Assembly (NCBI RefSeq): GCF_009753675.1
Contig: NZ_WQLV01000001.1
Coordinates: 62,001-126,000, forward strand
From: Parasedimentitalea huanghaiensis
GTDB taxonomy: Bacteria; Pseudomonadota; Alphaproteobacteria; Rhodobacterales; Rhodobacteraceae
Direction of reading: 5' to 3'
Length of the DNA stretch: 64,000 bases
A program made the translations under genes and the position numbers. Positions 30,778 through 51,233 of this stretch are shown piece by piece; within the stretch, counting starts at the first letter, position 1, and every line of letters starts with the position of its first letter. Below the pieces are notes generated by a model, which was not told the origin of the DNA, ran no database searches, and was given only the letters and a program-made list of their open reading frames with translations.

Positions 30778-30960
30778 AGGCAGGCCCGTGTTCTCACATT
30801 TGATGGGTCTGTTTGTTCGTCTCAGGTGTTGTCATTCGTAGGCATTGCAAACAACAGTTTCTGGAGGGACTAGGCGGCCCAACCGCAAGGCAGGCAAAAT
30901 GGTCATCGAACTAGGGTCTATCAGTTGGTGATAGATATGCCATTAACTTCAAGAATTTAA

Positions 30961-31035
30961 TGGCTCCGGCGGTAGGGATCGAACCTACGACCAATTGATT
31001 AACAGTCAACTGCTCTACCGCTGAGCTACGCCGGA
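30961..31035 (-). tRNA. tRNA-Asn (GTT), first copy
   Basis: On the minus strand the sequence folds as a 75-nt tRNA with encoded CCA: acceptor TCCGGCG/CGCCGGA, D-arm GCTCAGCGGTAGAGC, anticodon loop CTGTTAA with GTT, T-arm with GGTTCGATCCC. An identical gene lies at 46635-46709 in the same orientation. Confidence 0.96.
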
Positions 31036-31046
31036 ACGGTGCGTGT

Positions 31047-31076
31047 CGTATAGCCATGGAATCTGGTAAGGTCTAG
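31047..31076 (-). promoter_or_regulatory. Promoter of tRNA-Asn, first copy
   Basis: Reading the minus strand, CTAGAC (-35 like) is followed after 18 bases by TATACG (-10 like), then CACGCACCG before the tRNA. The second tRNA-Asn copy has the same arrangement with the same 18-base spacing and an identical ACACGCACCG leader, which supports the call. Confidence 0.5.
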
Positions 31077-36510: not shown

Positions 36511-37749
36511 TTATAGCCAGAACCACATCGCCATAAGTAGAATACCTAATCCCAGCAATGCTTGCAGGACCGCCCCTCCAGTGAGGATCCCGATCACACG
36601 CAATTCGCTGGTCACTGCCTCTAGCGCATCACGACGAACCAACCAGTAGTAGCTGTCATTTGGCAATATTGCGATAAATGAGCCAAGGCAGATTGCAAAT
36701 ACCGCAACCACAGGGTCCAGGCCACTTGCCACAACCACTGGCGCTGCAACCGGAGCAACAGCTGCAAACGTTGCCATGCTGGACCCTTGTGCGAGTTTGA
36801 ATAGGACTGTCAGGCAAAACAGGCCCAGTATCGCGAAAGTGCCGCTGCCTCGTGGTACAAGATCGTCAACCGACACAAGTGTGGTCAATACAGCCCCAAA
36901 CGCACTGGCTGCACCGATCACCAAGAGCAATGAAGATGTGCGTCGCACAGCGCTGTCAAAACATGCACGCCGGGCGTTGGATGGCGTCTGTGCCAACGCG
37001 AGAACTGCAGCCGCAACCAACGCGCCTTTGGGTAGGAACAGGAAGTCGATAATTGGTATTTCGGTCTGACCAACCCAAACTCCGAGCCCAAGTAGGGCTG
37101 CTAGAACACCAAATGGTGCAAAGGATTGTATAAGTTTTCTATCCACCACCTTCGTCTTTGCGGGGGCAGGGAGGTTAGCACTGCTTGATCCATCATGGCG
37201 AACAACGAGACGCGCCCATATGACACCGGCGATTGCCAACGGTATCGCTAAAGCTATCCCCATTAACATCAGCTTCCCCGTAGCTGTGTCGTCCCTTGCT
37301 ATGCCTAGTCCGGTTGCAACGATCAAAGGCCCAGCTGGATAAAGCAATTTGAAACCAGCGTAGGCGCCAAATGCGACGTCAAGTTTCCGCCTACCTGCTG
37401 CCGGAGACAGCGCCGCGTAGGCTGTGTCGGGGCAAATCATACCTGCTCCGGCAGCCGGAGATCCTATTGCTGCTGCTTTTTCAGCTCCGGGTGATGAAAT
37501 TTCGCGACGTGACAAGGCCGCAGCCAGAATGAAAGAGGGCAACAGAACCAAAGCGAATTCTCCGAGAGCTCTCCCGAACCCGCTGTTGAATGTGGAAATG
37601 AAGGTATTTGTTTCCATCCCACCAGCGAAGGCCAGCAGCATTGTGGCAAAGACCATCCAGATCACAAGTGGCATATTTGGTAGCAAACCTGCTGGCATCA
37701 CCCGGGTCGTAGAGGGGTTTCTTGAGGGGAGAAATGTTGGTTGTGCCAT
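36511..37749 (-). CDS. GntP family permease
   Basis: A 412-residue permease with about 11-12 hydrophobic helices. The conserved GntP segment LFKLAQGSSMATFAAVAPVA (about residues 317-336) and the C-terminal region FIAILPNDSYYWLVRR place it in the gluconate/sugar-acid:H+ symporter family. The substrate is probably a sugar acid or other carboxylate. GGAA lies upstream of the ATG at 37749. It is divergent from a LysR-type gene 87 bases away, which would be its regulator but appears damaged. Confidence 0.85.
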   Translation of the reverse strand: MAQPTFLPSRNPSTTRVMPAGLLPNMPLVIWMVFATMLLAFAGGMETNTFISTFNSGFGRALGEFALVLLPSFILAAALSRREISSPGAEKAAAIGSPAAGAGMICPDTAYAALSPAAGRRKLDVAFGAYAGFKLLYPAGPLIVATGLGIARDDTATGKLMLMGIALAIPLAIAGVIWARLVVRHDGSSSANLPAPAKTKVVDRKLIQSFAPFGVLAALLGLGVWVGQTEIPIIDFLFLPKGALVAAAVLALAQTPSNARRACFDSAVRRTSSLLLVIGAASAFGAVLTTLVSVDDLVPRGSGTFAILGLFCLTVLFKLAQGSSMATFAAVAPVAAPVVVASGLDPVVAVFAICLGSFIAILPNDSYYWLVRRDALEAVTSELRVIGILTGGAVLQALLGLGILLMAMWFWL

Positions 37750-37836
37750 TTAAGGAGTTCCGATCTTGCTTCATAATTTAACCTGATGCTAATTTCGGAG
37801 TTCATTTTGTTTAAATAAGAAATTGGCGGCCCCAAC

Positions 37837-38739
37837 ATGAGTTTAAATCATCTTAAGCCATCGCTCAGAGCTCTCGAAGTTTTTGAATCTGCGGCCCGCA
37901 TGGGTGGGTTTACTTCAGCCGGAAACGAGTTGGGCATTACGCAAAGCGCGGTTTCTCGCCAAGTTGGTGATCTAGAAGCCATGTTGGATGTGACGCTTTT
38001 TCAACGGCGAGGTGCTCATGTCACCGTTACGCCCACGGGCAAGCGACTGGCTGATACGCCCACGGGCAAGCGACTGGCTGAGCGGCTCGCAGTGGCGTTG
38101 AAAGATATGCGTGCCGCTGTTTCAGAAGCAGCACGTTCAGACGGGATGGTCACCCTATCTATGTTGCCTTCTGTCGCTGCCAAATGGTTTGCCCCTCGAC
38201 TGGGTCGTTTTGTTACCGCGCATCCACAAATTGACCTGCGCGTTTCAGCGTCCAGGCATCTTGTTGATTTTGAGGTCGAGGGGGTAGATGCCGCAATTCG
38301 TTATGGTCGTGGTTCATGGCCGGGCCTCGCAGCGCAAAAGCTTGCGAGTGAAACGGTTTCTCCGGTCTGTACACCGTCTTATGCGGAACGGCTTGGCCTA
38401 AGTGAGCCAGAGGACCTTATTCAGGCGACCCTTTTGTACGGGGATATCCCTGAAGATTGGGAGGCATGGTTTGCGGTTGCAGGATGTGCTGAAAATGTAC
38501 CACCCGGTCCCCGGTTGGGGGACGATGCAGCCATATTGCAAGCAGTTCTTGATCATCAAGGGGTAGCTCTTGGCAGATCACGCTTGATCGAAGATGACCT
38601 GGAATCAGGTAAGCTTGTTACTCCCTTTGATATCCGCTTATCAGCAAGCCATGCCTATTGACTTGTCCAGCCAGAAATAGTTGAGAAAAGTGATGCGATG
38701 TTGCGCGTCGAAGATTGGGTCAAAGCGGAGTTTGATTGA
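37837..38739 (+). pseudogene. GcvA-like LysR regulator with internal duplication and premature stop
   Basis: The open frame 37837-38661 encodes a 274-residue LysR protein: helix-turn-helix (LGITQSAVSRQVGDLEAML, about residues 31-49) and most of the ligand-binding domain. Two defects show. A perfect 27-bp tandem duplication (38028-38081) repeats TPTGKRLA in the linker helix. The protein then stops at ASHAY with TGA (38659-38661), yet the same frame continues for 25 codons (LVQPEIVEKSDAMLRVEDWV and onward) to a TGA at 38737-38739, a sequence that fits the normal GcvA-type C-terminus. It faces the gntP-like gene and probably once controlled it. A sequencing error could explain the stop but not the duplication. 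Confidence 0.8.
38028..38081 (+). repeat. Perfect 27-bp tandem duplication
   Basis: Two direct copies, 38028-38054 and 38055-38081, identical base for base and in frame (nine codons). The lack of divergence points to a recent event. Confidence 0.95.
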
Positions 38740-46596: not shown

Positions 46597-46633
46597 AAAA
46601 AAGCCACCAAGCTATTGAGCTTAGTGGCTTTTT
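46597..46633. terminator. Terminator after tRNA-Asn, second copy
   Basis: AAGCCAC-c-AAGCT and AGCTT-a-GTGGCTT form a 12-pair stem with one mismatch and an ATTG loop, flanked by A on the left and T on the right. It ends directly at the tRNA 3' end on the minus strand and could act on both strands. Confidence 0.85.
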
Positions 46634-46634
46634 A

Positions 46635-46709
46635 TGGCTCCGGCGGTAGGGATCGAACCTACGACCAATTGATTAACAGTCAACTGCTCTACCGCTGAGC
46701 TACGCCGGA
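46635..46709 (-). tRNA. tRNA-Asn (GTT), second copy
   Basis: Identical in sequence to the gene at 30961-31035, including the encoded CCA, and in the same orientation. Its 3' side carries a strong terminator that the first copy lacks; the promoter side is conserved between the two. Confidence 0.96.
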
Positions 46710-46720
46710 ACGGTGCGTGT

Positions 46721-46750
46721 CGTATAGCGTCCGGATTCTAGAGCGTCCAG
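46721..46750 (-). promoter_or_regulatory. Promoter of tRNA-Asn, second copy
   Basis: CTGGAC (-35 like), 18 bases, TATACG (-10 like), then the leader ACACGCACCG. Only the spacer sequence differs from the first copy, and CCCCTC before the -35 is also shared. Confidence 0.5.
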
Positions 46751-50025: not shown

Positions 50026-51233
50026 TGCGACAGTTTTTTCTAGGTTTTCTTATTTTCGCGCTGTCAGTTGGGACATCACCCGAGAGTGTGATGCGGTTGT
50101 CCCCCAGCACCGATGCAGCTGATGCCAGAAGTCGGGGCGGCGGTGGTAGGGCCCGACCATCTGGCGGTAGCCGCGGCGGGTTTTCAGCGGCTCCCAGAAC
50201 CCGGCCTTCTGGTGCGCGAACCCGTCCATCTGCTGGCACGCGCCCATCTCCGCGCACACGCCCCTCCACTGGTACCCGGCCTTCGACGGGTACGCGTCCC
50301 TCTACGCAGCCTTCAACTAGGCCTGCGAGACCTCCTGCTGTTGCGCCCAGCAGGCCATCTGCAGGACAGCGACCTTCCACCCGCCCGTCGGCAGGTGTTC
50401 GCCCCCCAGGTGCACGGCCTCCTGGGTCGCGCCCTCCTGGTGCCCGGCCACCCGGCCACCGTCCACCTGGGACACGTCCACCTGGGACACGTCCTCCAGT
50501 CGGGGGGCGTCCACCCGGATACCGTCCGCCAGGGTATCGTCCACCAGCCTATCGTCCACCCTATTATCCGCCGCCATATCACCGTCCGCCGCATTACCAC
50601 TATGGCCCTTATTACTATAATCCGGGTTGGGGCTGGTTCTTTACAGCGGCCATTGTTGGGTCGACGCTGGTCTATACAACTTCATTACCTTCTGATCAGG
50701 AGTGCCAGAAAGTCACTGAAAACGGCGAAACGTTGTATCTGTGTGATGGGGTCCTGTATCGTTCGACCTTCTATGAGAACGAAAAGGTCTATGAGATTGT
50801 TTCGGATCCACCAGCGGAGGAGGGCGCACCTCAATCTGTTGTTGGCATGGGCCTAACCGATCCACTGACTCGTGGCGATGCGGTCCGTGAACTGCAAAAC
50901 CGTCTGGTTGGCGCTGGCTACGATGTTGGCGGCGTTGATGGTGTCTTTGGTGGTGGTACTGAAACCGCAGTCATGTGGTTGCAGTATGACAATGGGCTGG
51001 AATCCTCCGGTTTGATCGATCCCCCAACCGCTCAATTGCTTGGGTATGATGTACCGGGTTCTGCAGAAAGTACTGCTCCTCCGGTGGAGCAGGGGTTGTC
51101 AGAAACATCACCGAACGATGCTGAAGAACCTTCCGCAGCACCCGAAGCTCAACCGGATAGCACAACACCTGATGATCAGGCCACGGCTCCAATCGAGGGT
51201 GAAAGCCCTCCGGTTGAAGAGACGCAAAACTAA
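50025..51233 (+). CDS. Exported Arg/Pro/Gly-rich protein with peptidoglycan-binding domain
   Basis: A 402-residue protein. After a signal-like N-terminus (FFLGFLIFALSVGTSPES) comes a low-complexity region (about residues 35-200) made of TRPSTG and RPPGARPPG-type repeats, then a Tyr/Pro/His-rich stretch, a hydrophobic segment (GWFFTAAIVGSTLVYTTS), and a small DUF6515-like Cys-containing module (QECQKVTENGETLYLCDG). A type 1 peptidoglycan-binding domain follows (RGDAVRELQNRLVGAGYDVG to GLIDPPTAQLLG, about 290-350), and an acidic/Pro tail closes it. The basic repeats could bind cell-wall or surface polymers. It follows the DUF2092 gene with one base of overlap. Confidence 0.75.
   Translation: MRQFFLGFLIFALSVGTSPESVMRLSPSTDAADARSRGGGGRARPSGGSRGGFSAAPRTRPSGARTRPSAGTRPSPRTRPSTGTRPSTGTRPSTQPSTRPARPPAVAPSRPSAGQRPSTRPSAGVRPPGARPPGSRPPGARPPGHRPPGTRPPGTRPPVGGRPPGYRPPGYRPPAYRPPYYPPPYHRPPHYHYGPYYYNPGWGWFFTAAIVGSTLVYTTSLPSDQECQKVTENGETLYLCDGVLYRSTFYENEKVYEIVSDPPAEEGAPQSVVGMGLTDPLTRGDAVRELQNRLVGAGYDVGGVDGVFGGGTETAVMWLQYDNGLESSGLIDPPTAQLLGYDVPGSAESTAPPVEQGLSETSPNDAEEPSAAPEAQPDSTTPDDQATAPIEGESPPVEETQN
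50150..50600 (+). repeat. Low-complexity coding repeats
   Basis: Short degenerate units coding R-P-S-T-G and R-P-P-G, including a perfect 15-bp tandem (GTCCACCTGGGACAC) at about 50460-50495. The variable region length suggests slippage. Long frames in other phases here are shadows. Confidence 0.7.

What the first reader, a model, noticed from the sequence alone, without database searches (positions are those of the whole stretch)
37837..38739. LysR gene with recent 27-bp duplication and premature stop
A perfect nine-codon tandem duplication sits in the linker helix, and the frame is cut by TGA although 25 further codons match a normal LysR end. Two independent defects in one regulator suggest relaxed selection or a regulatory switch, with the divergent gntP-like permease losing control.
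Basis: seen in the sequence. Interest (0 to 1): 0.55.

Follow-up and report, generated by a model that had tools for sequence, protein, structure and literature searches.

The report
Recently damaged LysR regulator gene
In this marine bacterium one ordinary gene-switch protein carries a nine-residue repeat and an early stop that a sister species lacks, so the gene is probably freshly broken or weakened; this is a common kind of event.

Summary
LysR frame 37837-38661 carries a perfect 27-bp tandem duplication (38028-38081) and ends at TGA 38659-38661; 25 in-frame codons follow. A same-genus relative, Zongyanglinia marina DSW4-44, has the same neighbourhood and a LysR 95% identical, with one 27-mer and a tryptophan codon at the stop. 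In 38 aligned relatives, 0 have residues in the inserted columns and all 38 have at least 23 residues past the stop column. Both changes are derived. lysR dN/dS against the sister is 0.147, third highest of 12 local genes I compared (0.010-0.266), so long relaxed selection is not evident. TGA is an ordinary stop here and no UGA-reading tRNA turned up in an incomplete tRNA survey. The divergent permease is GntP-family, closest to arsinothricin exporter ArsQ but under that model's cut-off; it adjoins this LysR in 7 of 7 other genomes whose stretch I fetched, four chosen because both genes had matched. Best reading: a recent, probably loss-of-function allele of a GcvA-like regulator; lost induction is likelier than constitutive permease expression. 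Nothing functional was tested.

The parts
37837..38661 (+). GcvA-like LysR-type regulator, truncated frame, 274 aa
38028..38081 (+). perfect 27-bp tandem duplication, two copies, nine codons each, in frame
   Evidence: absent from sister and from 38 of 38 aligned relatives
38659..38661 (+). premature TGA; the column is Trp in the sister and in 7 of 7 permease-linked orthologues
38662..38739 (+). remnant of the C-terminal tail (25 codons plus stop), identical over all 78 nt to the sister's coding sequence
36511..37749 (-). divergent GntP/ArsQ-like permease, 412 aa, open frame of the same length as in the sister; likely target (inferred)
37813..37823 (.). candidate operator AAATAAGAAAT; four relatives keep AAATGAGAAAT at the corresponding place, so the window differs by one base (37817)
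37786..37791 (-). possible -10 element of the permease (TAGCAT on the minus strand), position conserved in relatives
   Evidence: read by eye in the alignment; the consensus scan found no promoter

Best explanation
This is a recently damaged allele of a GcvA-like LysR regulator whose usual partner is the divergent ArsQ/GntP-like permease. A single in-frame 27-bp tandem duplication (replication slippage or a similar event, inferred) adds nine residues between the DNA-binding wing and the dimerisation helix; this may be tolerated. A nonsense mutation removes the last 26 residues, which should supply the final strand and helix of the effector domain (inferred from the family), and probably destabilises the protein or blocks its response. 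The likely result is a permease no longer inducible by its effector, with lysR no longer autoregulated (both inferred).
For: Sister species with conserved gene order has one copy of the 27-mer and Trp at the stop. 0 of 38 aligned relatives have the insertion and all 38 have 23 or more residues past the stop column. Trp at that column in 7 of 7 permease-linked orthologues. The two 27-mers are identical and the 78 nt after the stop equal the sister's, both consistent with recent changes. TGA ends 21 of the 43 other long open frames of the window (22 of 44 with this one). The 46 Rfam tRNA places hold no TCA, CTA or TTA anticodon; no tRNA-Sec passes the cut-off.
Against: No expression or functional data. 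lysR dN/dS is low (0.147), so the gene was under constraint for most of its history and could still work in part. Zero differences in the 78-nt tail do not date the stop. The tRNA survey is incomplete: no tRNA-Tyr appears among the 35 anticodons, so something was missed. At the stop column only 13 of 38 relatives have Trp. One assembly only; no reads were available.
Confidence: 0.74

Rival explanations
1. The truncated, insertion-bearing protein is still functional or has an altered, for example effector-independent, activity.
For: HTH and most of the effector domain remain; the duplication keeps frame and leaves a complete second copy of the helix start; low dN/dS.
Against: 0 of 38 relatives end this early; the shortest tail beyond the column is 23 residues. 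Six positions invariant in a four-sequence alignment lie in the lost part: W275, V277, P279, V291, W294, F299 (window row read through the stop).
Confidence: 0.14
2. UGA is read through at a low level by tRNA-Trp, giving some full-length protein with the ancestral residue.
For: The position is Trp in the permease-linked orthologues. The authors of PMC5373646 favour near-cognate Cys and Trp tRNAs as the cause of UGA readthrough in two E. coli genes (passages read). The codon is followed by C; that UGAC is a weak stop is recalled from Poole 1995, seen only in a reference list.
Against: The same paper calls bacterial readthrough rare and did not see the products in a strain with the efficient RF2. 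The only tRNA-Trp found has anticodon CCA, a five-pair anticodon stem, A9 and G24 (ARAGORN; stem and positions are my reading), lacking the features named as promoting readthrough in PMC13092985 (passages read). 5 of the 43 other long frames also end in TGAC.
Confidence: 0.07
3. Sequencing or assembly error at one or both sites.
For: Draft assembly of 40 contigs; single genome.
Against: A 54-bp array is shorter than ordinary reads, and two different kinds of error 0.6 kb apart would be needed (inference); lysR aligns to the sister with no other gap.
Confidence: 0.05

Closest known systems
GcvA subfamily of LysR-type regulators (NF008352; solved relative PDB 8y6u)
   Same: Best NCBIfam model, and best solved relative over residues 7-272
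   Different: 253.2 bits against a cut-off of 288, so not called GcvA; nine-residue insertion, missing C-terminal tail; none of the five neighbouring frames scanned is a glycine-cleavage gene
ArsQ arsinothricin export permease (NF040536), for the divergent neighbour
   Same: 423.4 bits over residues 24-405; ArsQ is itself described as GntP-related (PMC8552651, passages read)
   Different: Below the model's cut-off of 480; in the arsQML operon it is As(III)-induced, probably under ArsR, and 'lysr' has 0 occurrences in that paper; arsM and arsL were not looked for here
Ordinary bacterial pseudogene or nonsense allele (recalled category)
   Same: Premature stop with the downstream coding sequence preserved and an intact sister copy
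   Different: Also has an in-frame tandem duplication; loss of function not shown

Membership tests
LysR-type transcriptional regulator | N-terminal HTH_1 domain | tested here: met
   PF00126, 69.1 bits against 26.6, residues 10-69
LysR-type transcriptional regulator | LysR substrate-binding domain | tested here: met
   PF03466, 88.9 bits against 28, residues 101-266, profile 4-176 of 209, so the end is missing
LysR-type transcriptional regulator | complete C-terminal end of the effector domain | tested here: not met
   frame stops at 274; all 38 aligned relatives have at least 23 more residues
GcvA (NF008352) | score over curated cut-off | tested here: not met
   253.2 against 288 for the truncated protein
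ArsQ (permease neighbour, NF040536) | score over curated cut-off | tested here: not met
   423.4 against 480
GntP permease (neighbour, PF02447) | Pfam score over gathering score | tested here: met
   60.5 against 22.5
Pseudogene | disrupted frame relative to intact orthologues | tested here: met
Pseudogene | loss of function | not testable with these tools
   needs expression or reporter assay
Phase-variable repeat switch | copy number that varies among strains | tested here: inconclusive
   two copies here, one in the sister, no insertion in 38 of 38 relatives; no second genome of the same species was available

The most novel reading that the evidence does not exclude
The UGA at the Trp position is leaky, so a small share of full-length regulator with the ancestral residue is made and the permease is set by translational fidelity: a natural low-dose regulator allele in which the linker duplication changes the activity of the short form.
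Probability: 0.05. Interest if true: 0.45.

Novelty: new member of a known kind. Interest (0 to 1): 0.17.

Why it matters
As a lesion it is routine: a local regulator gene caught soon after damage. Its use is as a natural candidate loss allele for a conserved pair that I found no study of (I searched only for ArsQ and for GcvA-type regulators): a GcvA-like LysR beside an ArsQ-like permease, with a candidate shared operator. Comparing this strain with Z. marina could show what the regulator does.

Tried and rejected
Relaxed selection: tested by dN/dS over 12 gene pairs that I chose from the shared stretch (not every frame there) and by polarising 14 amino-acid differences. No clear excess on the window branch: 6 window-derived, 4 sister-derived, 4 unclear, counted with six outgroups at 40-58% identity. 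lysR is third highest of the 12 in dN/dS.

Recoding of TGA: no tRNA-Sec over the cut-off, though 5 sub-threshold hits, and the control search rang in all 14 genomes, 5 over the cut-off. ARAGORN found a tRNA in each of 46 loci that cover the 46 Rfam places (58 rows because loci overlap), 35 anticodons, none TCA, CTA or TTA. No tRNA-Tyr was among them, so the survey missed at least one gene. TGA is the commonest stop among long open frames of the window, 22 of 44 including this one (a mechanical list of frames).

Structure prediction: two AlphaFold jobs on four-row alignments gave mean pLDDT 41.2 and 38.4, too weak for a claim about stability; no fold search was run.

Literature: truncated LTTRs (12 listed of 1,333, none opened); UGAC readthrough (17 listed, mostly eukaryotic or viral by title, none opened); near-cognate UGA reading (12 listed of 38, two opened for passages); GcvA linker helix (two listed, none opened); the genus names Zongyanglinia and Parasedimentitalea (8 listed, none opened); ArsQ (two listed, one opened for passages).

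Operator: a consensus promoter scan of 37700-37900 found nothing, so the -10 assignment is by eye. The 11-mer has one difference in L040 and was not found in L052; the two L040 pairs tested were not significant (526 and 421 of 1000 shuffles). One near match to the word in the 64-kb window is no more than chance gives (mean 1.68); the evidence is the conserved place in relatives. 8 of 87 intergenic bases differ from the sister, so one change in an 11-mer is expected.

Dating: 27 of 27 identical positions bounds copy divergence only below about 10.5% (95%), weak against dS 0.159.

Full report
What is there. The window frame 37837-38661 encodes a 274-residue LysR-type regulator with HTH and effector domains. 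A 27-bp unit occurs twice, head to tail and without mismatch, at 38028-38081, adding TPTGKRLAD between the DNA-binding wing and the linker helix. The frame stops at TGA 38659-38661, and 25 further codons follow in frame to a second TGA at 38737-38739.

Where it lies. The window is 64 kb of a 784-kb contig in a 4.86-Mb draft genome of 40 contigs. The host species itself is not named by any search. Gene order is shared: permease divergent, chemotaxis receptor convergent downstream.

Comparison. The sister's LysR is 95% identical over aligned residues (92% when the gap is counted), has one copy of the 27-mer and reads Trp where the window stops. The 78 nt after the window's stop are identical to the sister's. 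I aligned the best LysR frame of 43 loci and dropped 5 that repeat a genome already there, leaving 38; 7 of these are paralogues from the window's own genome, and the loci are only those the capped searches returned. 0 of 38 have residues in the inserted columns and all 38 have at least 23 residues after the stop column. That column is Trp in 13 of 38, Arg in 13, Phe in 4, Tyr in 4 and other in 4; it is Trp in 7 of 7 orthologues that adjoin the permease. Both features are therefore derived in the window lineage.

Selection. Against the sister, lysR has dS 0.159, dN 0.023 and ratio 0.147. The other 11 genes compared range from 0.010 to 0.266; only the permease (0.266) and the next LysR (0.194) are higher, so lysR ranks third. 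Of 14 amino-acid differences, outgroups place 6 on the window side and 4 on the sister side, with 4 unclear. The gene does not look long abandoned. The damage is probably young, though the data date it only loosely.

The partner. In 61 genomes the permease matched in 7, one of them a weak partial hit; in the other 6, the window's own included, it lies beside the lysR match. Within the genus it is present in 5 of 8 genomes. In the fetched stretches the two are divergent neighbours in 7 of 7 genomes other than the window's. Three of the 7 (Z. marina, Thalassospira australica and a Sneathiellales MAG) were found with lysR alone; the other four were fetched because both genes had already matched nearby, so they are not independent tests. 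The permease is GntP-family by Pfam and closest to ArsQ in NCBIfam, under its cut-off. ArsQ exports arsinothricin (PMC8552651, passages read). The substrate here is unknown.

Candidate operator. AAATGAGAAAT stands shortly upstream of lysR in L038, L039, L050 and L051, with one difference in L040; it was not found in L052. The longest shared word was reached in 0, 2, 4 and 1 of 1000 shuffles for L038-L039, L038-L050, L039-L050 and L038-L051, but in 526 and 421 for the two L040 pairs. The window has AAATAAGAAAT (37813-37823). With 8 differences in 87 bp of intergenic DNA, one inside an 11-mer is expected, so this is not proof of a third lesion.

Is the stop real in the cell? TGA ends 21 of the 43 other long open frames of the window. 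No tRNA-Sec passed the cut-off. The 46 Rfam tRNA places hold no UGA-reading anticodon, but the survey shows no tRNA-Tyr and so is incomplete. The one tRNA-Trp is CCA with a five-pair anticodon stem by my reading. Some UGA readthrough occurs in E. coli K-12, where it is called rare (PMC5373646, passages read), so a little full-length protein cannot be excluded.

Mechanism. Shown: the two changes, their derived state, and the recurrent pairing with the permease. Inferred: loss of the last strand and helix disables or weakens the effector domain; the permease loses its specific control. LTTRs next to a divergent target usually activate it (recalled), so low uninducible expression is likelier than constitutive expression.

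Verdict. A confirmed, recent, ordinary lesion in a local regulator; low interest in itself.

Noticed in passing
L052 6983-7753 (genome G037): The permease of this relative is only 256 aa: matches to residues about 21-92 and 242-408 lie in one open frame, so about 150 residues are missing in frame, while its LysR is full length.
   Followed up: partly
window 37813-37823; L038, L039, L050, L051: An 11-bp word AAATGAGAAAT is conserved between divergent lysR and permease starts across distant relatives; the window has one change in it.
   Followed up: partly
window 30956-31054 and 46630-46728: Two nearly identical (99%) 99-bp copies, each holding a tRNA gene on the minus strand, 15.7 kb apart.
   Followed up: no
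window 50460-50560: Two neighbouring arrays of a 15-bp unit inside an open frame of 402 codons.
   Followed up: no
window 36511-37749: The GntP-family permease scores 423 bits to the arsinothricin exporter ArsQ model, under its cut-off of 480, and has the highest dN/dS (0.266) of the 12 genes compared.
   Followed up: partly
genome G000: No tRNA-Tyr among the tRNA genes found by the Rfam search and ARAGORN; probably a gap of the search or of the draft.
   Followed up: no
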